In this document: piece after piece, positions 1 through 59,286 of the stretch
Layout: each line of letters opens with the position of its first letter
How positions within the stretch are numbered: position 1 is the first letter of the stretch
Assembly (NCBI RefSeq): GCF_964275005.1
Contig: NC_092705.1
Span: forward strand, 9,846,641-9,910,640
Direction of reading: 5' to 3'
Length of the DNA stretch: 64,000 nt
Source of the DNA: Diadema setosum
Taxonomy: Eukaryota; Echinodermata; Echinoidea; Diadematoida; Diadematidae
Made by a program: the position numbers and the translations under genes
The notes under the pieces: model-generated
What the model was told of the DNA's origin: nothing
Database searches by the model: none
What the model saw: only the letters and a program-made list of their open reading frames with translations

Positions 1-59
1 CGTAGGCCTATAATATACCAAGTGTATGGACATTGAGGGGGTGGGGACTGTGTGGGAGA

Positions 60-1320
60 GGGTAGTACCCTCCCACACGACGGAGTTTTTGAATTTTGAA
101 ATTTGAAGATACACGTAGTACGATCTGATGCACACTTTCGTGGAATATTCAGGAAATTGTCGATCCCAAAGGGTGCCGAGTTTAATTCTATGGATGGGAA
201 CCGCGTGGGGAAAGGGTTAATTTAAAAAGGATGAGGGAATTTATTAGAATTGAAGTGACAGAATTGATGAAATATTCTGCACTTGCCCAACTCTCCAAAG
301 TGTATAGGGGACGAAATGGCCGGAGGGTGTGGGAAGGGGTATCCCCCTCCTAAGCGAGGAAGATTTTGCATTTTCAGAATGGAAATTCAAGCATCTGGTG
401 CATAATATGGGTGAAATATTTGGACAGTTTTCTATCAAAAAGCAAGAAAATTTTCCTCATTTCGGGAACAAATTGGGGACAAAATGTTTGCCCTCTAGTC
501 CTCCAGGATCGACACCCGTGCATACGAGGAAGCTTTTGCATTTTTAGGATTATGATGAAAATATCTCGTAAACACATTTATGATGGATTTAGAAAATTTC
601 CAATCCCAGAAGTGCACAAAATCTAAGGAGAGAACCAAGCGGTGGGAATTAAGGTTAATTGAAAGTATGTACATATCCCTTCCCACCCTCCCGACGGAAC
701 TTTTGCACTTTTTTTTATCCGAATTGACAGACCTGGTGCACACAATGAAACATTTGGAAATCTGTCAATCTAAAAGTGAATCATGGTAAGAACCGAACGG
801 GTAGAATATGAAAGGGGGCAGGCCGATCCCCTCTCACGCGAGGGACATAATGCATTTTCAGAATTGAATTTAAGCTATATCTCGGGAATTACGAAGGGCG
901 GCAAAATGATACATTAGCCCCCAATACATGGGAGGAACTATCCCTTGCCCCCCCCCCCCCCCCCCATCGACGCCTCTGCATATGAGGGAAATTGTGTCAG
1001 TAAAATATCTGCTGCACACTCTTTGATAGAATATTAGGAAACACGTCAATCTCAAAAGTGTATGTAAAGTCTAATGAGAGGGACCACGCGGGGAGCTTTT
1101 GCATATTTATGATTGCAAATAACGATCTGGTGCATACTTCTTGTGGTATTTGGACAATTTTTCATGAAAAAAAAATATCGAGATTTATCCTCATCTCAGG
1201 AATTTTTTGGGGGAGGGGGACAAATGATTTGTTTGCCCCCAACATTTTCATGGGAGCGGGCCGAATGCCCCCCCCCCCCCCTTGGATCGACGCTGATCAT
1301 CCTTGTGTACGCCGATAGAT
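60..1320. repeat. Decayed tandem array, units about 115-175 bp
   Basis: About eight diverged units start near 78, 222, 355, 528, 690, 836, 980 and 1093. Each recurs with a core like GAGGAAGCTTTTGCATTTT, then a stretch like ATCTGGTGCACAC, then a 'CAATCCCAAAAGTG' block and a C- or G-rich block that often precedes 'GGATCGACGCC'. Open frames here differ from unit to unit and run through the repeats, so no gene is supported. The array may continue left of the window. Confidence 0.7.
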
Positions 1321-2693
1321 GTATCCTAACTGAGTCATCAGAGTCATCGTTTGATCAATGATTCCGGAAATGGGTGAGTGGTTTCAATTATGGCGGTATC
1401 GTTTTTTTATTTGTTTGTTTTCGTACGTAATTTGCAGATGGTCCCCAGTTGTGCGCGTCATGGCATTATACACGTAGGCCTTCACTATTTGACGTTTCCG
1501 AAATGTGGACCATGCCTTATGTCGATATTACTATATTCACGAGCGAGCAAAGCGAGTGAGCGCTTGAGAAAATTATGTAGGCCCTATACATATCCCAAAA
1601 GATAGATTACTGTTAAAGGGGACCTCCGGATGATTTTCAGACTTTTACATTTGAACAACTATAAATCACTTAAATTGAGTACAGAGTTTCAGAATTTATA
1701 GTGATTGGGATGAGGAATGAGAATGTTTTCAAAATTTATAACAAATTGCAATGAACAAGGATCTTGACATGGAAGCCTCACGACAAGAATGCATGAGTTG
1801 GGGCTCACGGAAGCAGAACAAAAGAAGAAGGCATGCATATGATTCTTCACAGGTGAACTTGTTGAGCACAGTGGCGTAACTACGGGGGGCATGGGGGGCA
1901 CGTGCCCCCCCCCCCCCCAAATCCGCTGGTTAAAAAAAAAAAAGAAAAAAGAAAGAAAAAAAAACTACCAAAATGGTAATTCAAGGGTTAGTAACCTGCT
2001 TTTGAAATCGACATGAAAGGATGATCAAGAAAAAAGATATTTTTCTAAGATTTCTTTTAACCATATAATAATTAAAGAGGTATTATAGTGAAACATTGTT
2101 CAAAAAGCCCGGAGACGACAAAAGATTGTGATTCAGCGTGATTCCCGGTTGGCATTTTGAATATAAGCAGGATGTGCGCAGTGTACTCAGAACATCGGAA
2201 TGGCAAAAAGAGTCGCTGCAATGTTACGCAATGTGATGTTGGATAGGTTGTGCACATTGTTTTGCTATCAAAGCTTGATCATTGATTTTGCAGTGTTGCT
2301 TTACATACTAGTCTATATTAAAATGCCTTGCATTGCCAATAACAAGACTTGACCTTGGCTATTTCCTAACTTTTCCATCTTCATGAAACACACACACTCA
2401 CAAACACAAACAAATTAGGGGATGCTCTATATAAAGTGCAGATTTTGGACATTTTAACCGTTGTATGTCATTCTCCTGATGTTACTGCCAATAATTGCCA
2501 GCAGTTGCGCCCGGTACCCCCCCCCCTGAATTTCCAAAGCGAAAAATATAGCTACAAACGGCAGTTTTGGGACTGCAAAATGTCAAAATTTTCAAGCTCG
2601 CTCACTTCGCTCGCTCGCATTTAATCGTTATGCCATTCTCCTGATGTTACTGCCAGCAATTGCCAGCAGTTGCGCCCGGTGCGCCCCCTCTCC

Positions 2694-3261
2694 TTAAAGG
2701 ACAAGTTCACCTTCATATACATAAGGATTGAAAGAATGCAGCAATATTAGTAGAACACATCAGTGAAAGTTTGAGGAAAATCGGACAATCCGTTCAAAAG
2801 TTATGAATTTTTGAAGTTTTTGTGCAGTCACCGCTGGATGAGAAGACTACTGCAGTGTATGATGTCACATGCGTACAACAATATAAGGAAAATATAAAGA
2901 GAATTTCACAAAATTTCATCTTTTGAAAAAAGTACACATTCCCTTGACTCGTTACTGACATATGTTATGGGTAATATTATTCCCATTGCCTTTAGAAAGA
3001 GGCAAGTCAAGTGCTCTTTTATTATGCGAAAAAAAGTGAAAATATGTTGAATTTTCTTTACATTTTCTTTATACTGTTGTACTCATATGACATCACGAGC
3101 CTTAGTAGTCTCCTCATCAAGCGGTTCCAACACAAAAGTTTTGAAAATTCATAGCGTTTGCATCGATTGTCCAATTTTCCTCAAACTTTCACTGATGTGT
3201 TCTACTAATATTGCTGCATTCTCTTAATCCTTATGTTAATGAAGGTGAACTTGTCCTTTAA
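2694..3261. mobile_element. MITE copy 1, TTAAAGGACAAGTTCACC ends
   Basis: This element has long terminal inverted repeats: TTAAAGGACAAGTTCACC on the left and its complement on the right, with the match extending inward. Uninterrupted cassettes nearby read CCCCATAATTTCC where this one is split, so they act as an empty site. They indicate a TA duplication, or TTAA if one base has changed. There is no coding capacity. Confidence 0.85.
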
Positions 3262-3593
3262 TTTCCAAAGCGAAAAAATATAGCTACAAACGGCAGTTTG
3301 GGGACTGTAAAATGTCAAAATATTCAAGCTCGCTCGCTTCGCTCGCTTGCATTTAATCGTTATGCAATTCTCCTGATGTTGCTGTCAGTAATTGCCAGCA
3401 GTTGCGCCCGGTGCGCCCCTTCCCCATAATTTCCAAAGCGAAAATATATAGCTACAAACGGCAGTTTTGGGACTGTAAAATGTCAAAATTTTCAAGCTCG
3501 CTCACTTCGCTCGCTCGCATTTAATCGTTATGCCATTCTCCTGATGTTACTGCCAGCAATTGCCAGCAGTTGCGCCCGGTGTGCCCCCTCTCC

Positions 3594-4163
3594 TTAAAGG
3601 ACAAGTTCACCTTCATATACATAAGGATTGAAAGAATGCAGCAATATTAGTAGAACACATCAGTGAAAGTTTGAGGAAAATCGGACAATCCGTTCAAAAG
3701 TTATGAATTTTTGAAGTTTTTGTGCAGTCACCGCTGGATGAGAAGACTACTGCAGTGTAAATGATGTCACATGCGTACAACAATATAAGGAAAATATAAA
3801 GAGAATTTCACAAAATTTCATCTTTTGAAAAAAGTACACATTCCCTTGACTCGTTACTGACATATGTTATGGGTAATATTATTCCCATTGCCTTTAGATA
3901 GAGGCAAGTCAAGTGCTCTTTTATTATGCGAAAAAAAGTGAAAATATGTTGAATTTTCTTTACATTTTCTTTATACTGTTGTACTCATATGACATCACGA
4001 GCCTTAGTAGTCTCCTCATCAAGCGGTTCCAACACAAAAGTTTTGAAAATTCATAGCTTTTGCATCGATTGTCCAATTTTCCTCAAACTTTCACTGATGT
4101 GCTCTACTAATATTGCTGCATTCTCTTAAGCCTTATGTTAATGAAGGTGAACTTGTCCTTTAA
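3594..4163. mobile_element. MITE copy 2, product of the 900-bp duplication
   Basis: This copy is almost identical to the one at 2694-3261 and lies at the same place within its unit. It was therefore copied by tandem duplication rather than by a second insertion. Confidence 0.85.
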
Positions 4164-4327
4164 TTTCCAAAGCGAAAAAATATAGCTACAAACGGCAGTT
4201 TGGGGACTGTAAAATGTCAAAATATTCAAGCTCGCTCGCTTCGCTCGCTTGCATTTAATCGTTATGCAATTCTCCTGATGTTGCTGTCAGTAATTGCCAG
4301 CAGTTGCGCCCGGTGCGCCCCTTCCCC

Positions 4328-4546
4328 ATAATTTCCAAAGCGAAAATATATAGCTACAAACGGCAGTTTTGGGACTGTAAAATGTCAAAATTTTCAAGCT
4401 CGCTCACTTCGCTCGCTCGCATTTAATCGTTATGCCATTCTCCTAATGTTACTGCCAGCAACTGCCAGCAGTTGTGCCCGGTGCAACGCCCTTAATTTCC
4501 TAAGCATATATATATATATATATATATATAATTATTATTATTATTA

Positions 4547-4593
<47 letters not shown>

Positions 4594-4700
4594 GCTACAA
4601 ACGGCAGTTTGGGGACTGTAAAATGTCAAAATTTTCAAGCTCGCTCGCTTCGCTCGCTCGCATTTAATTGTACCGTTATGCAATTCTGATGTTGCTGCCA
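4328..4700. repeat. GCTCGCTCGC cassettes with AT/ATT microsatellite
   Basis: Cassettes of about 165 bp contain 'AATTTCCAAAGCG', 'CTACAAACGGCAGTTT', the tandem GCTCGCTCGCTTCGCTCGC and 'CCAGCAGTTGCGCCC'. They recur near 2526, 3260, 3426, 4162, 4328 and 4590. The last is interrupted by (AT)n then (ATT)n at about 4506-4592. Confidence 0.85.
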
Positions 4701-5401
4701 TGAGGTGCCCCCCCCCCAATGTCTTGACCCACGGTACGCCACTGGTTGAGCAAGTGGTAATGGAATTGCATGCTACATTTCTGAAATATATGAGGCACTA
4801 CATTTCTGAAATATATGAGGCTCTGATGTCATCAACTGTTCAGTGTAATTTGTTTAAGATTTTCAATTTATTGGTTTCCCTGCTCAAGGACCACAACAAA
4901 TTCCACGAATCTATACATGGAGCTGTTGATTTATGTACTACATGGTGTAAAATTATGAAAATCGTCCGGAATGTCCCTTTAAGCTCTGTTTAGCTTTCTG
5001 AAGGCGGGCGTAAGAACGTCATGCAATATGCTGAAAATGATAAATCACATTTCTGCATGCTTCTTCCACTTTCCCGAAATTTTAAGGGCGGGGTGGGATG
5101 ATTGTACAAATTATGAAAAGTTGCCAACTTTTTTTTCTGCTAACCTGTCTGGTTATATATGGCATTTAATGATTAAAAAACGTTGGTATTGTACTGCTGA
5201 AATACATATGACTAAAATATATAAATCAAATATATTTTTAAAGAATACCTGTACATGATTTCCTAATTGAGCTTGACTTTCATCTGGTGAATCAATCTGA
5301 TTTGTCCCCTGATTCCATATTAATCTGGCCTGTGGAATAATCGTTTGTGCCCAGCCTTGTCGAATGCCCTACTGGTCTCTCCCTCTTTATTACAAACCAA
5401 A

Positions 5402-5436
<35 letters not shown>

Positions 5437-5593
5437 CCATAAACTAGAGCACTCGGCTGGGGGACCAGTTCGAGCACATTGTATCCCCGAACATGTCCCC
5501 AATATCCCATTTGCATGACTTTGTATATAGGCCTATTGTATAATATGCATGACAACTGTTGATACAATGCAATCCGGAGACGAGAAATGAGGC

Positions 5594-5885
5594 TGGTATA
5601 GCACATACAAGAAATAATATATGACATAGCATCCTATAAAAGTGGGAACAAAGAGGGTGCTGTAAATACAAAGTTATGTTTCCTATAAAAAAAAAAAAAA
5701 AATCCCATGAACCTCCACAGCAAGTTTGAATAAAGTCCCACAATGAATGTGGCTGACAGAGCATAAACAAGACATGTGACATGGCATCAAAGTCAGAACA
5801 CTGAGGGAGGGCATCGTCACCACAAACAGTTATGTCCTACAATGACCGCCCATGCACCTCCTAAACAAGTCTGAATAAAGTCTGT
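5594..5885. repeat. Two diverged tandem units of about 155 bp
   Basis: 5594-5745 and 5749-5885 share the order 'GCTG..AGAGCA..ACAAGA', 'GACATGGCATC', 'GGGAGGGC', 'CATGCACCTCC' and 'TTGAATAAAGTC'. A poly(A) run at 5404-5434 and another at 5686-5701 lie beside or within them. No gene is seen. Confidence 0.6.
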
Positions 5886-6031
5886 GAATAACAATCAAGT
5901 TTACTGCATAAATAAGCATTTTCGCAAATTTTGACCTGATGGGGATAACCTTTATCCTTGTAAAAGGTGGAACAGTGGGGGCAGTATTACCAATAGGTAT
6001 AGGCCTGGTGTCTAGATTTGACTATAATACA

Positions 6032-6184
6032 CAGTGGCGGATCCAGATGGGGGCGCACCGGGCGCACACCCCATTTAATTTTTGTTAAAACAAAAGAAAT
6101 AAAAAGAAAAAATGGACGGGGGCGTGCGCCTCCTTTAATTTTATAAGTCGCACCCCTTTTACGGAATTCCTGAATCCGCCCCTG
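6032..6184. mobile_element. Short hAT-like MITE (CAGTGGCGGATCCAG ends)
   Basis: This 153-bp element begins CAGTGGCGGATCCAG and ends GAATCCGCCCCTG, an imperfect terminal inverted repeat with hAT-like CAG/CTG ends. No convincing 8-bp duplication is visible, so the class rests on the ends alone. Confidence 0.65.
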
Positions 6185-6221
6185 CTTACATATCAAACTA
6201 GAAAATATTCATGTCGATATG

Positions 6222-6970
6222 GCGACTGGTTTGCCTCCGCTATAATGCATGGTTCTCCTAATAGTTCTATACTACAATGTCTTGACCATGTGTGATGACA
6301 GTTTCACATAATTGGAAAACTATCAAATGACAGGTTTGTCACGAATGAGTTGAATGTTCACTTTCCTTGAATTAGGTTTTATTGGATGAATAGCCATAAC
6401 TGTCTAAGAGTGCAGGGATTTGGGGATTTGAGGATTCTTACTTGACTTTTGACCCTTCTATAAGTTTATGTATTGAATAATTTTCAAGGTATGAAGACAA
6501 AGTATAACTTTAGTATTAATAAGGAAAATTTAACATTTTAACCGATCCTTTCACCCTTGACCTTTGACCCTATGATCACAAAATTCCCAAGAGAATCACT
6601 GTCAGGTAAAACATGCATAAACATCTACTAAGTTCCAAGATGATACCTTGAGTCACTTTTGAGAAGGAAAAAGTGAAATTGAGCACTTTGACCTTTTGAC
6701 CTTTGATCTTTTGGAGAGAAATTCCCAGAAAATCTCTATTGGTTAATACATGTATATATTAAGCTTTAAGAAAAATCCTGCAAAGATTGCATAAATATGA
6801 GGGAAGAAGTGAAATTCTGAGGAGTTGACCTTGACCTTTGACCCTGACCATTGACCCATGACCCCCAAATTCCTTGGATAATCACTGCCAGTCAGTACAT
6901 GCATATGTACGAAGTTCCATGAAGATGTGTCAATGGTGTCAATTTCTGAAAAGTGTGACCACACTCTTTC
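6222..6970. repeat. Dispersed GACCTTTGACC-rich repeat, copy 1
   Basis: This copy matches 49137-49900 over most of its length, starting at 'GCGACTGGT..GCCT' and 'ATAATGCATGGTTCTC'. Internally it has about 150-bp subunits, each with 'ACATGCATA..TACTAAGTTCCA' and a cluster of TTGACCTTTGACC motifs. It lacks the GGAGGCATAA end seen in copy 2. The family is not assigned. Confidence 0.75.
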
Positions 6971-7377
6971 ACAGGACTGGTATGCCAAACATTCGCCAAA
7001 GTGTCGAGATCTGTCACTATTAGTACTACAATAAATCATGCGCATATGACGGAGTCTTAAAAAACAAATTAAGAACAAATTAAATGCAAATCACGATCCG
7101 GACTGCTGGGAACGTACGGGAGAGCTTTCTTTTTTTTCTCTCTTTTTTTTTTTATTTAATTACCGCCGAATTAAAAACAACGCCAGCGAACAATGTTGAC
7201 GACGCTTCCCCGACGCGCTCGCGCGGGTATGGGGATCTTTGTTGGAGCTGATGTTATCTCCAAAACAGGAAATCAAATTTGAACCATAAAAAACAACTCC
7301 TGGTACCATTAACAACTTCAATAAGAGCTTGTGTCTCGCAAGCACTTAAATCGGCATCATCTTTTGAAAAGGGTTTG
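6971..7377. other. 3' flank of the NLR gene
   Basis: There is no coding signal. On the minus strand an AATAAA hexamer lies at 7151-7156, about 225 bases past the NLR stop codon. It is a candidate polyadenylation signal in an AT-rich stretch, so support is modest. Confidence 0.4.
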
Positions 7378-8978
7378 TCACAAAGTTAGATGAAGATACT
7401 CCATCACACTAGCCCCACTGTTGGCTATACTTACCACTTGGTCATGATGAATCATGAATAACGTTCCTGATATTGTATGGTATGAATCATAACATTGTGA
7501 TATGCTGTATTTCTTCCATTGTTTTCCCATTCTTCTGGTGGCCTCCACCGTAAGACATTCAAACGCAACATCAATGCAGTAATATTTGTCACCACATTCT
7601 ACTAATCCATCGATGATGTCAAGGCCAAGTTCTTTCCGTAAATACGAGGAGAAGTAGAGTAGGTAACGAAATTCCTCACGGTTATGAAGAAGTCTTTCTT
7701 TAAGTCGTAAGTACTTGGAACGATCCTCATCAAATAAAGTCTTAACGTAGATCCCCGCAATGTATTCCTGGAACAATTTGTGGGGGAACGACACCATTGA
7801 CTCAACGAAGGATGAAATGCCAATTTCGCGCCGACGCTCCCTGCTGATGATATCTGTCTCTAATGTCAAAACCCCGACTTCGCAGCATATTTCCATGGAC
7901 TTCTCACATTTGTTGAATTTTTCTACAGGAAATGATAGTCTCTTGTTCAATAAACCTTCAAGCGCCATCTCACCGATGTCTTGAATTGCCTTACCAGCAT
8001 TCCTAAAAAGTTCAGCTGTCTTCGGATGCTTCAGATGTTCACACATTTTTGATGTATAGTGCTCTTTTAGAAAATCTATCATGTTTTCAAAAATCTGTGA
8101 GAAAGTTTGCAATTTCAGCATTTCTTTTCGTTTTTCTTCACTTGTAGTAGCATTCCACATAAGACAAAGCATCGCACAGTAGATTGGAAACAAGGACATG
8201 TTCGACCGGATGACATCATTGTTTTCCATGAAAAAAATCAAATTTTCTGCAACAGCATCCTTCCCTATAATTCCAAAGTATCTCTTGATGTAATTTTGAA
8301 AATTATCCTTGTCAAATCCTTCGACGCTAATGAAAGTGTAGGTTTCAGCAAGTGCTCTTTCCATCGTTATTACATCTTTTTTCCATGGTCTTGTGGTGAC
8401 AATTACCTTGCATAACCTGTACTGCTCTAACTTTAGAATGCGCATGACCTCACTGCTGCACTTCTCGTCAAACTCGTCGAAACCATCAAACACGAGGAGA
8501 ACTTTACCTTGCTCTCTTGAGATATAGTCATCTATCTGGTTTGCCGTTGCTTCATTTGAATCAGAGAGATACCTTTTCACAATACCACCAATGGTTGACG
8601 TGTCATGGACTTCCCGAAGAGGAATTAAAATCACCAGGTTTATATCGTGAAGAATCTTTTCGTTGCACCAGTCCAAGGCGATCTTAGCGCAAAGTGTTGT
8701 TTTCCCGGCACCTCCCTCTCCTTGAATTAGGATGCGTTTTGAAAGACTTTTATCTTCACCACCGGTCAAAAGATCCTCGTACGTAATTGTTTTTTTATGT
8801 TTGCCACTTTGCTCTGTAAGACTGAAATTGGTATAAATTTCATCAAACTTTACACTATTCATGAAATCGAGAGGGTCCACATTGATCTTGCTTCTTGACA
8901 AACGGTAATGCTCCTTCAGTTCTTTTTTGATTTGCTTTACCTGTTCCTCCGTAAGCAAAGATACGCGAGTCGATGATC
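7378..8978 (-). CDS. NLR exon 3: NACHT NTPase domain
   Basis: The exon starts after a pyrimidine-rich acceptor (CTCTTCCTAG|GA) and runs open for 532 codons to TGA at 7378-7380. It encodes Walker A (GEGGAGKTT), Walker B (LVFDGFDEFDE), a VTTRPW sensor-like segment, and helical NACHT-associated regions including SFPHKLFQEYIAGIYV, which resembles the winged-helix end of the module. The open frame extends upstream of the acceptor to 9162, but that stretch is intronic. Typical NLRs continue into leucine-rich repeats; this exon does not reach any. Confidence 0.9.
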
Positions 8979-10692
8979 CTAGGAAGAGAGGCAAAAAGAA
9001 AAGAGACAGATAGTCACTGTGTGAATTATGTATGCATATATCAGGGCTCAACGCTAACTTTTTAAACTGGTGGTCCGTTAGAACCACTAAAATCTTTAAA
9101 TCTGAAATATTGGGGGTCTGGAAAAGATATTTAGTGGCCCGAAATAAAATCATAAGTAGCAATCTATTTAAATCTCATGGTCCAATCGCAATTTCAGATA
9201 CAGCAAAAATCCAAACAATAAAGAAACAGAGTTTCACGAAAAAACAAAAAAACAAAAAACGAGTTCACAGTCTATTTGTTTGTTAGCATTAGAGATCAAA
9301 TGTGCTTTTGAGGTAACGTCTTAGTTGTTATTTTTTTCTGCCAATTCGAGTAACTGAAATTAAACAGAGCATATACCATCATCCTCATTAAAAACACATG
9401 AACGAAAAATGTTTTAGAGACTATTCTTGGATCTTAAAAGCGTCAAAATCTCTCCAGTCACATTGTATAAGCACAATGCATCAAAGCATCAGACTAAACA
9501 GAGATTTTGAGCATCAAGATTCGCTATGCGTATTATAGCTATAGAAACTATAAGTGCCCGACCCTCTCGCTTTTTAGCAAAGATGAGATAGGCCTACAGC
9601 GTTTTCTAAAACAAATTTCAAATATTCTTCTTCAACGTCAAATCGTTCTGTTTTATGTGATGGTAGTCTAGACATGATATTCTGTGCAACAAAACAACAT
9701 TAACGACAACAACAACAACAGTAGAAACAGCACATTACATCAATCATTATCGCATGTACCTCCAGTATATACGCATATTGATAAGAAGTACATAATTATA
9801 ACTGTATATTAATATGACTGATGTAATGTGTATTTAATTCACCACTGCCGACAAACCTGTGCAAATCAGAAACGGGTCCACCGCATTCGAGAGAATGTTT
9901 ATAAAGCTACAGTTGATACACCTAATGAAAACTGTATGACAGTGGCATGATTAGTGGCACAGTTTGGACAAAGGAATAAGAATCCAGTTAACATCCCCCC
10001 CCCCCCTCCTGACAATAAACGAAAATATATCACATTACCTGGTAGTTTGGAGTGATCTGTTATTATGTCAGTCAAGCCGTCCAATTTGCATTCTCGAAGT
10101 TTCTCCTTAAGAACACTGGCGATATCGGTACCAGGAGGTTGTTTATATCTCCATTTGCAGAGCATCTCCATCAGAGCTTCAAGAGTGTCCGATTGATGCT
10201 TCAATTTGGCATCGTTTAATTCCGCATACGTGAACCCAAGAGAGTTTCCCAAATCGCGGTATGCTGAGGGATCTATTTTTCTACGCAAGTCTAGAAACAT
10301 CGTCTCATAGTATAATGTGCTGCATGAAAGAAGGTGAAAGGTTGTAAAGCGTATGAATACAAAGAGATGTACAGCTGTACAAATGTTTTGGTAAACGTAT
10401 ACATCAAAAGAGCATAATTTCATTCAAGGAGATCTCTTCTATCCAGAAATAAAATTAACAAAGAAATGCTTGAGACGGACGGATATAGGTACACATGTAA
10501 TCAAACGAGGAAGACAGCAGGACACACTAAGATCACATGTCTCAAAATACATAAATACTGGAAGCCGTATAATCCTATAGCTACACACTACCTGTCAGAG
10601 GAAGCATCCTTCGGACCTGGGTTGGATTCGATGTCGCCCGCCCTCATTAGGCGTATGCGTGCCATGTAGCTTCCACATAGTAGCGCAACCAT
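7378..10692 (-). CDS. NLR immune sensor: 2A-like leader, Death domain, NACHT NTPase
   Basis: This is a three-exon gene: 10692-10592, 10319-10039 and 8978-7378. Exon 1 ends with two bases (AG) completed by C of exon 2. Exon 2 ends with one base (G) completed by GA of exon 3. All introns are GT-AG. The spliced protein is about 660 residues: a 2A-like leader with DIESNPGP (residues 20-27), a Death domain (about 41-122), and a NACHT domain with Walker A GEGGAGKTT (214-222) and Walker B LVFDGFDEFDE (289-299). NLRs are cytosolic sensors that oligomerise on nucleotide binding and recruit adaptors through Death-fold domains. Leucine-rich repeats are absent before the stop. A strong donor (GTAAGTAT at 7434) just before the stop could instead lead to an LRR exon, but none was seen in the window. 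The family call is firm; the 3' end is not. Confidence 0.88.
8979..10038 (-). other. NLR intron 2, with a transposon-end fragment
   Basis: This GT-AG intron of 1,060 bp separates the Death and NACHT exons. Near 9042-9150 it holds CAGGGCTCAACGCTAACTTT followed by TGGTGG and AGTGGCCCGAA. These resemble 26276-26345 and suggest a degraded hAT-like element end. Nothing else is recognisable apart from a short (CAA)n near 9705-9721. Confidence 0.55.
10039..10319 (-). CDS. NLR exon 2: Death domain
   Basis: The exon has 281 bases between an acceptor TGCAG (10323-10320 side) and a donor CAG|GTAATG (intron begins at 10038). It carries 2 bases in and 1 base out, so the frame matches both neighbours. The roughly 90 residues show Death-domain spacing: LRRKID, YRDLGNSLGFT, TLEALMEMLCKWRY, then TDIASVLKEKLRECKLDGL and TDII. 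Death domains pair with other Death domains in signalling complexes, here presumably downstream of nucleotide-driven NACHT oligomerisation. Confidence 0.85.
10592..10692 (-). CDS. NLR exon 1: 2A-like N-terminal peptide
   Basis: The ATG at 10692-10690 has a good context (A at -3, G at +4) and follows an in-frame stop further upstream. The 33 complete codons begin MVALLCGSYMARIRLMRAG and continue DIESNPGP then KDASSD, ending at a CAG|GTAGTG donor. D-x-E-x-N-P-G-P is the 2A consensus, at which ribosomes skip the bond between the final G and P. Such peptides at the N-terminus of sea urchin NLRs are reported to act also as signal sequences. Skipping here would release a 26-residue peptide and start the NLR at proline 27. 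The leader is only weakly hydrophobic. 5' UTR and promoter were not located. Confidence 0.85.
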
Positions 10693-11160: not shown

Positions 11161-13590
11161 AAATAATAATAATAAAGGACATTTATATTGCGCAGCTACT
11201 ATAATGATATGATCTACTGCGCATTACAAAATGACATGCCTACAAGAAATTCAAACAGAAAATACATGACTTCAAAAGATGACTTTTGAACATGGCCTTA
11301 AACTCATTAATTGTAACTGCTTGTCTTACAAACAAAGGGAGATTATTCCATAATTTTGGTGCAGCGTACAAAAAATGCCCTGTCACCAAGAGTAACTTTT
11401 GATTTCCCCGTTGGATATTTCAATAATGTTTGATCCCGTGAACTTCGAAGATAATAAAATGTTTGAGATTATGTTTTTAATTCTACAAGTTCTTGTATAT
11501 ACGCTGGTACTGTACCATGAATAGCTCTATATACAATTAGAGTTTTAAATATGATTCTCTGCTTTACAGGCAACCAATGTAATGCACGTAGTAATGGACT
11601 ACAATGAGAAAAACGAGGAGAGTTACAAACTGATCTAGCACATGCATTTTGCACCCTTTGTAGTTTACCTAATTGATTATCAGGTAAGCCATAAAATAAA
11701 CTGTTACAATAATCCAATCTGCTTGTGACAAACGCATGGATGATTTTTTCAGTACTTTCCCGTGCCAAATGCTTCCGAATGGATGTGCAATATTAAACAA
11801 ATGATAAAATGAATTTTTACATACTTCAGAGATATGTCTGTCAAAGACTAGGCGTGAATCAAACCACACTCCCAGATTCCGTGCAGAATCAACAGGATAA
11901 ATATCAACATCAATCACTTTCAGGCTTTCATTGCGTAATTTGGAAATTTGCTGTTGAGTTCAACATATTACAAATTCGGTTTTCTTATCATTAAGTAAAT
12001 TTAGAAAATTGTTGGATAATAACCATTTGTGAAGATGCACAATACATCGCTCTGTAATGGTCACAGAATAATTCTCATCTGCTGCAGTAGGTGAAAAAGA
12101 TATGTACAGCTGTGTATCATCCGCATAGGTATGACACATTACTTCTGGGAAATTGTGTTGGATTTCATGAAATAACCTACAAGCATACAAAGTAAAGAGA
12201 AAGGGACCCAGGCAGGAGCCTTGGGGCACACCCCAGGGTACATCAAACTCCTTGGACATACTGGAATCGACCTGAACCCTCTGTCTCTTATCATTTAAAT
12301 ATGACTCAAACAATGACAATGCCCTGTCAGTTATTCCACAATGTGCTTGGAGAACATTCACAAGAATGTCGTGTCTAATTAAATCAAAAGCTGCATTCAT
12401 GTCCAGTAGAACAAAAAATACCACCTGTTGCTTATTCATCGCTAACAGCAAATCATTTTTCACCTTTAATAGGGCTGTTTCTGTGCTGTGGTTTTGTCTA
12501 TATGCTGACTGCATAAGCCAGTTCGTAATTAGCTCATGTACACATTGGTACAAATGACCTTTCTTTTTTTCTTAGTTGGTTAGGCACTTCCCTCGTTTTC
12601 AAAGCGACATAATGCATAAGCTTGCCCGACCAAACAATTTATGGAATTCATGTTCAAACAAAGAATGAGCTTGCTTTAAGAACAGGTGATCAGAATACTC
12701 CATCAGTTGACAATTTAACAGGCATCCATTTCATATATCTTTTTTTGTTGTTGTTGTATTGAATGCAATAACAGTCTATTTCCTTTTATACTGCAAAATA
12801 CCATTCTTGCTGTTAGGTGGATATCTATGGCAAGCATTATTTAGATAAGGATCACATGAATAATCATCGCATCACAGATGCTTATCTCAGTGAATTTACA
12901 AACCCAAATGCCTGTTGATACAAATGACCTTTTTCTGCTCATGCGCAAAGTTGAATTACGAACTGGTCTATTGGTGGTAATAAATCATTGGTTACAAGAT
13001 GTTTGCTGAATTTGACCTGCTACTGCTGCTTCAACCAGTTTGGACACATATTGCAAATTACTAACGGGTCTACAATTTGAAAACTGTAAATCTGCATCAG
13101 GCTTTTTCAATAATGGTGTAACTACAGCCAACTTCCAATTCCTGTGAAAGTGTCCACTTGTCAGAGACAGGTTGATAATTTTTTGTAAGAACTGGCAATA
13201 GAATATCAATGTTCCTTACAACCAGCTTTGTGGGTATTGGATCCAATATACATGTCTTCTTGTTTAACTTCAGAACCAATTTTTGCACATCATATAGTAT
13301 GCACATAATGGAGAAAACTGTGACAACTTATTTTGAACTTCTGAATAAGAAGATGGGTTGGGGAATCCATCTGCTCTTTTCGACTGAATGTCTTCACACA
13401 TTTTCACTACTTTCTGCTCAAAATACATACCCAACTCATTTACAAAATTTTGAGTATCAATGTGTGATGGTAAATCAACTATAGACTTCTTCATATTTAA
13501 CAAAGACTTTGCAATATGAAACAACTTTTTCTGATCAGCAGCATTCTCAGTTATACATCCATTATAATAATCTTGACAATCATATAAAAT
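11161..13590 (-). mobile_element. CR1/L2-group LINE, 5'-truncated, split by a MITE
   Basis: Read on the minus strand, the pieces follow ORF2 order. 13593-13270 and 13306-12985 give the connector and RT entry (CILDPIPTKLV, WKLAVVTPLLKK, NCRPVSNL). 12500-11960 carries SAYRQNHSTETALL, VPWGVPQGSCLGP and TYADDTQLY. 11917-11469 is the C-terminal part, with RLDYCNSLFYGLP. The tail is an (ATT)n microsatellite at 11161-11176 behind a 'GCGCAATATAAATGTCC' end. Several frame changes make it inactive. No endonuclease domain remains. A 453-bp element at 12516-12968 interrupts it. Confidence 0.85.
12516..12968. mobile_element. Tc1-type MITE (GCCAGTTCG ends) inside the LINE
   Basis: The ends AGCCAGTTCGTAATT and AATTACGAACTGGTC form imperfect inverted repeats flanked by TA on both sides (12514-12515, 12969-12970). 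Its relative at 17914-18348 shows the same layout. Subterminal copies of ACAAATGACCTTT lie at both ends. No coding capacity is seen. The TA duplication suggests Tc1/mariner mobilisation. Confidence 0.75.
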
Positions 13591-53595: not shown

Positions 53596-54603
53596 TCAGA
53601 CGTGAATTTTAGTGCGGACGAATAAATGTCTGCTTGATGATTTGAATTTAGCGAAGGCGTTCCGATACGTGCTGTCTTTGACGCAGTATACAAACGGATT
53701 TATCAGGGAGCCGAGGCTAATCGTTACTGTCACCACGTCTATGGCAACAAGGTTCTGCAGGGGGCTGAATTGCATCGTCGCTTTCAAAAGAAAGCGAATG
53801 GCGGTCGGAAACCAACAGCCGCAGAACACGCAAACCATGAAGGTAATTACGCGGATCGCTTTGACTTGTCGCATGCTCTCCGGGATGAAAGCTTTCTTGC
53901 CGTTTGTAGCTACTGCATTCTTCTGCCTCATCTCACGTCGAGACTGTTTCATGGCAATGCGAAGGATACGCAGGTTACAGAAACAGAGTAGAACGCCAAG
54001 GATTAAAATGGCCATGCCGGATATGACGTAAAACTGTACACTGAAAGTCTTCGTGTAGCGCCATACGGAGCAAAGTTGAAGGTCCGCATCTCCGCTTTCG
54101 ACAGAGCCAACATTTACGACGGCAACGACACCGTAGATGATGCCGGCCAGCCAGGAGCAGGTGATCCCTACGACCTTCATCCTCGGTGTCACCACGGTCA
54201 CGTACTTTAACGGTTTCGTGATGGCGAAGTGGCGGTCGGCCGTGATCGTTATGAGATGCGACAAGGACACGCCGGAGAAGACGTATGATGAAAGAAACAA
54301 GAGGCGGGAGCTTGCGAAGGAGCAGGTTAGGGGACTCAGTACTACGAGGAAGTACAGAGATGAGGGCACGCCGACCAGACCGTTCACGAGATCCGAGAGG
54401 GCGAGGCTGTTGAGGTAATAGTAGTTTAGATGGCGAAGTTTTGACTCGCTCAGGACCACCAGCAAGACTAGAGCATTGCTGACGACTGTCAAGCAAATTA
54501 TTGGAATAATGACAGAGAGCATGACATGTCGGTGCGTATTGTAGTAGCTATCGTACAGAGAGTAGTTCGACATGGACGCCTGTGCTGGTTCAAGAAGAGA
54601 CAT
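53596..54603 (-). CDS. Class A (rhodopsin-like) G-protein-coupled receptor, orphan
   Basis: A single intact exon of 335 residues. The ATG at 54603-54601 is chosen because the frame upstream has no other ATG before it meets non-coding sequence. Seven hydrophobic segments are clear. Landmarks: N43 (TM1), LALSDL with D71 (TM2), C94 (start of TM3) pairing with C178 in loop 2, DRH 123-125 in place of DRY, W151 (TM4), CWFP 263-266 (TM6) and NPFVY 302-306 (TM7). N13 (NYS) is a possible glycosylation site. The usual TM5 proline is not seen. Such receptors sit in the plasma membrane and activate G proteins. The ligand cannot be told; amine- or adenosine-like groups are the nearest by feel only. Confidence 0.92.
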   Translation of the reverse strand: MSLLEPAQASMSNYSLYDSYYNTHRHVMLSVIIPIICLTVVSNALVLLVVLSESKLRHLNYYYLNSLALSDLVNGLVGVPSSLYFLVVLSPLTCSFASSRLLFLSSYVFSGVSLSHLITITADRHFAITKPLKYVTVVTPRMKVVGITCSWLAGIIYGVVAVVNVGSVESGDADLQLCSVWRYTKTFSVQFYVISGMAILILGVLLCFCNLRILRIAMKQSRREMRQKNAVATNGKKAFIPESMRQVKAIRVITFMVCVFCGCWFPTAIRFLLKATMQFSPLQNLVAIDVVTVTISLGSLINPFVYCVKDSTYRNAFAKFKSSSRHLFVRTKIHV

Positions 54604-54724
54604 TTTTCTGGCACTTTCTGTCAACCGTAATACACAATGTACTGCTATAGTCGCTCAATCGCGGCAGTAGCACCCTGAACAATAAAAAGTACACGACCGG
54701 AGACGTTCCATGCAAAGACGATCG

Positions 54725-57915: not shown

Positions 57916-59256
57916 TCATTTCCAGTCAAACCTTCTTCCTATTTGTTCAAACAGCTTTTCATTGTGAGGCCTGAAAAATTCACGTAGTCTTTGCTCAACG
58001 CGTTTTCCGATCACTGGGTGTGTCCTTCCCTTCCCGTCGCCCAGACATGTTTGTTTGGGCTTATAGCCCCGTCTGCAGAAGAAACCTTTCGATTCATCAA
58101 AATAAACGTGGGAACCGTCAAAGAATTTGGGCAGTTGAAGAAAAGATTCGAGCTCTTTGAGTATCGGCAGAGGGTCGGCCTGAAATTGGTCGCCATCGAT
58201 GACGAAGAATCGTTCCCGCGGGAATACGCTCAGCCATCTAGTGAACTTCTGGTGGTATATGCCACCAGTCAGTATGCAGTTGTAATCCATAAGAGCACCA
58301 TTTGGTCGCACCACAGTCGTTTCGAAGGTGTTATTTATAAAACAAAGACTAAGCTGACCAGGCTTCAGGGGACGGTCCACAAAGTGTTCCGGATTCTTTA
58401 TTTTGACCTTCAGGTGGACGTAATGTGACAAAGCGCGTACTACGGGATCTCGCACCACGAGAATGAACTTTGTGCTGTCCGGCATCATTCGCTGAATGTC
58501 CCTCTGAATAGTGGAGCTCGTGAAGTAGTTTGGGGTCTTCTCCATAGTGAGCTGGTATTTGGACGACACGGGCATACGGTTCCGGTACCAGTCCATTCCT
58601 TTGTACATGTGCTTAGTCCAGAAATAAACCTCGAAGGGGTATGCATGGACGAGGTTCGGATGCGTAGACAGAAGAAACGACACCGCTGCAGTGCCGCACT
58701 TTTCAACACCGATCCCGATGACTTGCGGGAGTCGCCGTTTACAGTCTAATTTCATCCTTGCAGTGTCGTTCGGTCTCTGGTTGCTAGGACACTCGACCAA
58801 GCCCGAAGGAGGTACCGTTAGGTTGGGCTGTATGGGCGGGTTGTCGCGTATTGCTCGCGCCCCTTCCTCTCTGACCTCCATCAGTCTGCGTTCGCGTTTC
58901 GTCGGGACGGTCTTCGGTATGCTCGGCTTCGGCGGAGATTTCGGTTCCAGCTCGGTGCCCGAATTGGGCGGTGAATTTGACTGTGACTTTGGTGGTGACT
59001 TAAGTGGTGACGTTGGCTTCGATGGCACGCCCCCATCGCTACGGATAGGATGACTCGCTGAAGATGACTGAGGAGATACCACTTTGGCAAGTGACGGTGC
59101 TGGGCCAGTGTTCTGCAGGCGTGGTAGAGGTGCTCCTATCACCTGCTGGGACCGGCTAGTGTCATGGAAGAGTAGACTGATTACAATGAGGGTAACCGAA
59201 GAACCAAACAGCGCCGCCAACACAAAATTCTTCACTCGCTCGTTGCGTCCCACCAT
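57916..59256 (-). CDS. Heparan-sulfate 3-O-sulfotransferase-like enzyme (type II membrane)
   Basis: An intact 446-residue frame. Residues about 10-30 (FVLAALFGSSVTLIVISLLF) are a signal anchor, and 40-145 are a Pro/Ser/Lys-rich stem. The sulfotransferase domain follows. It has the 5'-phosphosulfate loop GIGVEKCGTA (181-190, K186), MEKTPNYF (239-245), the 3'-phosphate segment VVRDPVVRALSHY (267-279), the C394/C404 pair and KGRTHP (409-414), in the order of HS3ST enzymes. These move sulfate from PAPS to glucosamine 3-OH of heparan sulfate in the Golgi. By family alignment the catalytic Glu is kept (E209), while the neighbouring His and Asp are Tyr211 and Thr214 and the loop Arg is Ala190, so the acceptor may differ. 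The exon begins at 59287 after a T-rich TACAG acceptor, implying an upstream leader exon. Confidence 0.9.
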   Translation of the reverse strand: MVGRNERVKNFVLAALFGSSVTLIVISLLFHDTSRSQQVIGAPLPRLQNTGPAPSLAKVVSPQSSSASHPIRSDGGVPSKPTSPLKSPPKSQSNSPPNSGTELEPKSPPKPSIPKTVPTKRERRLMEVREEGARAIRDNPPIQPNLTVPPSGLVECPSNQRPNDTARMKLDCKRRLPQVIGIGVEKCGTAAVSFLLSTHPNLVHAYPFEVYFWTKHMYKGMDWYRNRMPVSSKYQLTMEKTPNYFTSSTIQRDIQRMMPDSTKFILVVRDPVVRALSHYVHLKVKIKNPEHFVDRPLKPGQLSLCFINNTFETTVVRPNGALMDYNCILTGGIYHQKFTRWLSVFPRERFFVIDGDQFQADPLPILKELESFLQLPKFFDGSHVYFDESKGFFCRRGYKPKQTCLGDGKGRTHPVIGKRVEQRLREFFRPHNEKLFEQIGRRFDWK

Positions 59257-59286
59257 CTTGAGAATTGGGACCCGGAATCGGGTCTA

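What the first reader, a model, noticed from the sequence alone, without database searches (positions are those of the whole stretch)
10592..10692. NLR begins with a 2A-like ribosome-skipping peptide on its own exon
Exon 1 encodes DIESNPGP (10635-10612), an exact match to D-x-E-x-N-P-G-P, 19 residues after a well-placed ATG. It joins the Death exon in frame (AG+C) through a good donor. 2A-like N-termini are established for sea urchin NLRs, where they are reported to double as signal sequences and so allow two destinations for one gene product. Here the preceding 19 residues are weakly hydrophobic and positively charged, so dual targeting is uncertain.
Basis: partly seen in the sequence, partly recalled or inferred. 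Interest (0 to 1): 0.85.

Follow-up and report, generated by a model that had tools for sequence, protein, structure and literature searches.

The report
2A-like leader exon on an NLR
In what looks like a sea urchin genome, a small first exon gives an immune-receptor gene a virus-like peptide that probably makes the ribosome skip one bond and release the receptor without its leader, a trick already known from another sea urchin and seen here in a small, conserved gene group.

Summary
Exon 1 (10692-10592, minus strand) encodes MVALLCGSYMARIRLMRAGDIESNPGP and joins a Death exon and then a NACHT exon in frame. The window's own 912.7-Mb genome has 96 sites encoding D-[V/I/M]-E-x-N-P-G-P against 0 for the reversed pattern. 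I read 68: 48 precede LINE-like protein, 8 are a separate short-exon class, and 7 form one leader class (window gene, four close relatives, a distant pair). In those 7 the core varies only at the two positions known to tolerate change. Among five close relatives the last 14 codons are under strong purifying selection, the first 13 much less. An acceptor in matching phase exists in 7 of 7 tested genes. The leader shares R11-M12-L13 with the functionally tested Strongylocentrotus NLR leader; R11 is in 0 of 61 other sites read. It lacks that leader's long hydrophobic stretch and has R14 where leucine matters. I read it as a ribosome-skipping leader, perhaps weaker, with little ER targeting. Only 4 of 145 listed NACHT loci have such a site upstream. 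Transcription, splicing and skipping are not shown. New member of a known kind.

The parts
10592..10692 (-). Exon 1: 2A-like leader, 33 codons plus AG; 27 residues to the last Pro of NPGP
   Evidence: Direct reading; relatives on C4, C76, C2, C6 and C10
10612..10635 (-). DIESNPGP core; predicted skip between Gly and the last Pro
   Evidence: Direct reading; genome pattern scan; selection pattern
10039..10319 (-). Exon 2: Death domain
   Evidence: PF00531 E=2.1e-7; eight close copies in the genome, this one included
7435..8978 (-). Exon 3: NACHT, up to a candidate donor GTG|GTAAGT after 7435 (the frame stays open to a stop at 7378)
   Evidence: PF05729 E=4.2e-21; relatives at 56-64% identity; donor score

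Best explanation
The exon encodes an inherited, selectively maintained N-terminal 2A (StopGo) leader of a small Death-NACHT receptor lineage. While the 27-residue leader is still inside the ribosome exit tunnel, its core and the RLMRAG stretch prevent peptide-bond formation at Gly-Pro. The leader is released and translation resumes, giving a receptor that starts with Pro-Lys-Asp and lacks the leader; some product keeps the leader. Because the leader is short, charged and only weakly hydrophobic, the main effect is probably to make leaderless cytosolic receptor and to set its amount, rather than to send part of it to the ER. Shown here: sequence, exon order, fitting intron phase, family conservation and selection pattern. 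Inferred: translation, skipping, its efficiency, and destination.
For: 96 motif sites against 0 in the reversed control. Leader, Death and NACHT in the same order and strand in the window gene, C76, C4 and C10+, and with the NACHT further downstream at C6:6.9 Mb and C2. Acceptor in matching phase in 7 of 7. pN/pS 0.038/0.234 in the last 14 codons against 0.349/0.483 in the first 13, five genes, ten pairs. The core of 7 of 7 intact leaders varies only at M12 and x; M12V is an active natural variant in SpNLR2A6 (PMC4981915). R11 in 7 of 7 leaders and 0 of 61 other sites read. The leucine equivalent to L7 of F2A and an (A/S/C)G before D fit the L-rich upstream motifs (PMC12846837).
Against: No expression or translation data. 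R14 stands where L14G and L14D lowered activity in SpNLR2A6, and R replaces two residues of the Leu-rich stretch of F2A. The donor is moderate. C76, C2 and C6:6.9 Mb have CTG, CTG and ACG at the window's ATG; C2 has an in-frame ATG ten codons upstream, the other two have none before the leader, so there the start must lie in another exon or be non-AUG. Two further copies have broken cores. One of the eight close Death exons has no leader detected. The Death exon has its own early ATG, which could serve a leaderless transcript.
Confidence: 0.72

Rival explanations
1. Dual targeting as reported for Strongylocentrotus: skipped receptor stays in the cytosol, unskipped receptor enters the secretory pathway through the leader.
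For: SpNLR2A6 does both in HeLa and plant cells, and 12 of 14 Sp leaders were predicted signal sequences (PMC4981915). The window leader has a short hydrophobic start, MVALLCGS.
Against: Best 8-residue hydropathy is 2.10 in the window leader and 1.30 in C4, against 3.25 in SpNLR2A6; the arginines follow rather than precede the hydrophobic part; the C10 leaders reach only 0.70 and 0.56. No trained signal-peptide predictor was available.
Confidence: 0.17
2. The exon is not used: the protein starts inside exon 2 and the motif is never, or rarely, translated.
For: The Death exon has an ATG five codons in, also present at that place in C2, C76 and C4 but not in C6:6.9 Mb or C6:1.2 Mb. The exon 1 donor is only moderate. 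Two copies have decayed cores.
Against: Purifying selection on the leader core in five genes and a fitting intron phase are not expected of an unused exon.
Confidence: 0.08
3. The exon is a piece of a LINE retrotransposon captured recently.
For: 48 of 53 other motif sites read are followed on the same strand by protein like the LINE frames of this genome; 5 of 5 long frames scanned have endonuclease and 4 of 5 reverse transcriptase domains. A reverse-transcriptase fragment lies at 11960-12571 on the same strand.
Against: 0 of 7 leaders have LINE-like protein downstream and R11 is in 0 of 61 other sites read. The RT fragment lies 5' of the exon and is absent from the fetched flanks of the eight relatives checked (L032-L039). 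An ancient LINE origin is not excluded.
Confidence: 0.03

Closest known systems
SpNLR2A leaders of Strongylocentrotus purpuratus NLRs (Roulston et al. 2016, PMC4981915)
   Same: N-terminal, 27 against 26 residues, ahead of Death and NACHT domains, same R11-M12-L13, G9 and core. The SpNLR2A6 peptide was translated by me from a primer printed in the paper.
   Different: D-I-E-S instead of D-V-E-T; R14 instead of L14; max 8-residue hydropathy 2.10 against 3.25. Rarer here: 4 of 145 listed NACHT loci have a motif site upstream against 14 of 87 NLR entries with the leader there; the two counts were made in different ways.
Viral 2A/StopGo elements (Li et al. 2026, PMC12846837)
   Same: Core D(V/I)ExNPGP; the critical D12, E14, N16; a leucine at the L7 place of F2A; (A/S/C)G before D12 and S at p15 as in the L-rich motifs 2 and 6
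   Different: N-terminal on its own exon of a host gene; arginines at the p6 and p9 places, leucines in F2A
2A at the start of LINE frames in the same genome
   Same: The DxExNPGP core
   Different: Followed by LINE-like protein, with PHD finger and/or endonuclease and reverse transcriptase in the frames scanned; no R11

Membership tests
2A/StopGo element | D(V/I)ExNPGP core | tested here: met
   DIESNPGP at 10635-10612
2A/StopGo element | Permissive upstream context | tested here: inconclusive
   L13, R11, (A/S/C)G present; R14 in place of L14, whose change to G or D lowers activity in SpNLR2A6; R14 was not among the mutants listed there
2A/StopGo element | Skipping activity | not testable with these tools
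   Needs translation assay
SpNLR2A-type leader | N-terminal leader of about 26 residues on a Death-NACHT gene | tested here: met
SpNLR2A-type leader | Hydrophobic stretch giving signal-sequence activity (12 of 14 Sp leaders predicted) | tested here: not met
   Hydropathy 2.10 against 3.25; simple scale only, no trained predictor. Two of 14 Sp leaders were also not predicted, so this is not required of every member.
NLR | NACHT domain | tested here: met
   PF05729 E=4.2e-21
NLR | C-terminal LRRs | tested here: inconclusive
   No LRR motif or Pfam LRR in the 7.4 kb downstream inside the window; beyond the window edge not read

The most novel reading that the evidence does not exclude
In this lineage the leader is a pure recoding element: skipping has been kept by selection while ER targeting was lost or never gained. 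Its job would then be to make receptor with an N-terminal proline in place of methionine and to tie receptor output to the state of translation (for example elongation-factor activity under stress), not to split one receptor between two compartments.
Probability: 0.35. Interest if true: 0.65.

Novelty: new member of a known kind. Interest (0 to 1): 0.45.

Why it matters
Host genes with 2A-type recoding are described as very rare (PMC12846837), and the only tested animal-gene case I met in the held library is Strongylocentrotus NLRs (searches; most subscription papers are not held, and long listings were seen only in part). A gene group in what looks like a second sea urchin, with selection concentrated on the skipping determinants and without the long hydrophobic stretch, makes it testable whether skipping is kept for its own sake or for dual targeting.

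Tried and rejected
LINE capture: rejected as the recent source. Chance motif: rejected. Mitochondrial-type leader: considered because of the +3 charge. The best 11-residue hydrophobic moment of the window leader is 0.32 and of C4 0.29, about that of SpNLR2A6 (0.31), so not pursued; against this, C2, C10-, C76, C6:6.9 Mb and C10+ reach 0.78, 0.63, 0.59, 0.57 and 0.50, so it is not excluded for them. LRR search downstream: nothing. The C3 class as NLR leaders: none of its 8 sites lies within 30 kb of a listed NACHT and I saw no Death match within 50 kb; left open because the NACHT lists are incomplete. Species: bindin match E=2.9e-54 (three pieces, one with an in-frame stop) suggests a sea urchin. 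Not S. purpuratus, since the only DVETNPGP sites are two on C13, and the one read (L072) resembles the LINE frames by eye, though it was too short to match.

Rows dropped: two partial rows (second pieces on C16 and C17) were left out, and overlapping loci were merged; two broken leaders were added to the 96 sites. In one search the C10 pair and the two broken copies were left out.

Full report
Observation. The minus strand reads ATG at 10692, DIESNPGP at 10635-10612, donor after 10592, Death exon 10319-10039 and NACHT exon from 8978. The frames join as AG+C and G+GA (read by eye). An in-frame TAA is the 11th codon upstream of the ATG, with no AG between, so in this frame the ATG is the only AUG start before the leader even if a further 5' exon exists. 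It is the only NPGP in six frames of the window.

Genome context. The window lies in a 912.7-Mb genome, C22:9846641-9910640. A bindin match (E=2.9e-54) suggests a sea urchin; that is an inference. The DNA pattern for D-[V/I/M]-E-x-N-P-G-P matches 96 places and its reversal none. I could read 68 of the 96 at peptide level: 7 are leaders with R11 (window, C76, C2, C4, C6:6.9 Mb, two on C10), 8 are a separate short-exon class on C3, and 53 are others. Of the 53, 48 are followed on the same strand by protein similar to the LINE frames of this genome at E<1e-3; the five misses are sites where fewer than 90 bases were held. None of the 7 leaders and none of the 8 C3 sites gave such a match. For some short stretches the match may rest largely on the 2A region itself. 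Of five long frames scanned, 5 of 5 have endonuclease and 4 of 5 reverse-transcriptase domains.

The leader family. A protein search with the leader finds seven places at E<=1.5e-4, two of them with broken cores (C6:1.2 Mb ESDPGP, C6:0.15 Mb NPCP), and a weaker C10 pair (E about 0.5). A Death-exon search gives eight matches below 1e-20 and then nothing until 2e-6. Six of these eight have a leader 0.3-2.3 kb upstream on the same strand. One of the other two (C6:175860) lies 23 kb downstream of the broken C6:0.15 Mb leader, and one (C6:225273) has none detected. NACHT exons follow in the window gene, C76, C4 and C10+, and at C6:6920773 and C2:39860392. No NACHT was found in the stretch held for C10-. 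In 7 of 7 genes with an aligned Death exon there is an acceptor in the phase that fits the leader's AG end; several offer more than one AG, so this is supporting, not conclusive.

Selection. Among five intact close relatives (10 pairs, not independent) the last 14 codons show pN 0.038 and pS 0.234, the first 13 codons pN 0.349 and pS 0.483. The C10 pair and the two broken copies were left out of this count. In the seven intact leaders the core RLxRAGDIExNPGP varies only at the two x positions (M/V/L and S/T/C). Identity to the window gene in the best tblastn stretch is 64-76% for the leaders of C76, C2, C4 and C6:6.9 Mb and 52-56% for their Death exons.

Mechanism. In the published cases the core disables peptide-bond formation at Gly-Pro and upstream residues pack in the exit tunnel (PMC12846837, parts 1-4 of 7 read). 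The window leader has the leucine equivalent to L7 of F2A and the (A/S/C)G-D pattern, but arginines at two places of the Leu-rich stretch. In SpNLR2A6, R11A, L13V, L13A, L14G and L14D lowered activity while the natural variant M12V did not (PMC4981915); R14 was not among the mutants named there. With 27 residues the leader would still be inside the tunnel at the skip (from general knowledge of tunnel length), so the skip decision would come before a targeting factor could bind.

Targeting. Best 8-residue hydropathy: window 2.10, C4 1.30, C76 1.44, C6:6.9 Mb 1.12, C2 2.14 (counted from its upstream ATG), C10 0.70 and 0.56, SpNLR2A6 3.25, C3 class 3.56. The window leader has net charge +3, with the arginines after its hydrophobic part. 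This argues against a strong ER signal but is no trained prediction.

Rarity. Merging the top NACHT lists (102 rows, 83 of the 85 rows) gives 145 distinct loci. Four have a same-strand 2A site within 30 kb upstream, none has an antisense site upstream, and one has a site downstream (C3:24319001, LINE type). The lists are truncated (about 240 candidates), and the C4 and C10+ NACHT exons are not in them, so both counts are lower bounds.

Against. There are no expression data. C76, C2 and C6:6.9 Mb have CTG, CTG and ACG at the window's ATG; C2 has an in-frame ATG ten codons upstream. In C76, C2, C4 and the C6 copies the frame is open upstream to an AG in phase 0 (read by eye), so in some relatives the 2A may follow a further coding exon and not be N-terminal. 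The donor is moderate. No LRRs were found within the window, so the 3' end of the gene is unknown.

Verdict. The gene carries a leader of the kind known from Strongylocentrotus NLRs, kept by selection in a small Death-NACHT group. The missing long hydrophobic stretch and the arginine at position 14 are the points worth an assay. Literature seen: PMC4981915 (parts 1-4 of 6 and a term search), PMC12846837 (parts 1-4 of 7), passages of PMC11512398 and PMC8623073; all other papers as search listings only.

Noticed in passing
L005, L006, L008, L010-L014 (contig C3; eight copies): A second short-exon 2A class, MDILCVGVERDPPNPQAACRQKLSQDHLTALFLLLLVCGDVESNPGPNTD (composite of copies), with a GTAAG donor right after and a strongly hydrophobic stretch. 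The gene downstream is unknown; no conserved exon was seen in the 1.5 kb held.
   Followed up: partly
L064 (C6:1.2 Mb) and L065 (C6:0.15 Mb): Two leader copies with broken cores (ESDPGP and NPCP), apparently decaying relatives; the first still has a Death exon 2.3 kb downstream, the second has none within the 4.3 kb held.
   Followed up: partly
L060, L061, L063 and other relatives, upstream of the leader: The reading frame is open upstream of the leader to a possible phase-0 acceptor, so some relatives may have an extra coding exon before the 2A.
   Followed up: partly
window 11960-12571, minus strand: Reverse-transcriptase fragment of a non-LTR element just upstream of exon 1, not found in the fetched flanks of the relatives.
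   Followed up: yes
window 1-7377, minus strand: No LRR exons were found downstream of the NACHT exon within the window; the gene's 3' end is unknown.
   Followed up: partly
window 53596-54654 and 57916-59283, minus strand: A rhodopsin-type GPCR in one open frame and a sulfotransferase frame.
   Followed up: no
genome-wide, e.g. L041, L049, L050: Several LINE-like families carry 2A motifs directly ahead of PHD finger and/or endonuclease and reverse-transcriptase frames.
   Followed up: partly
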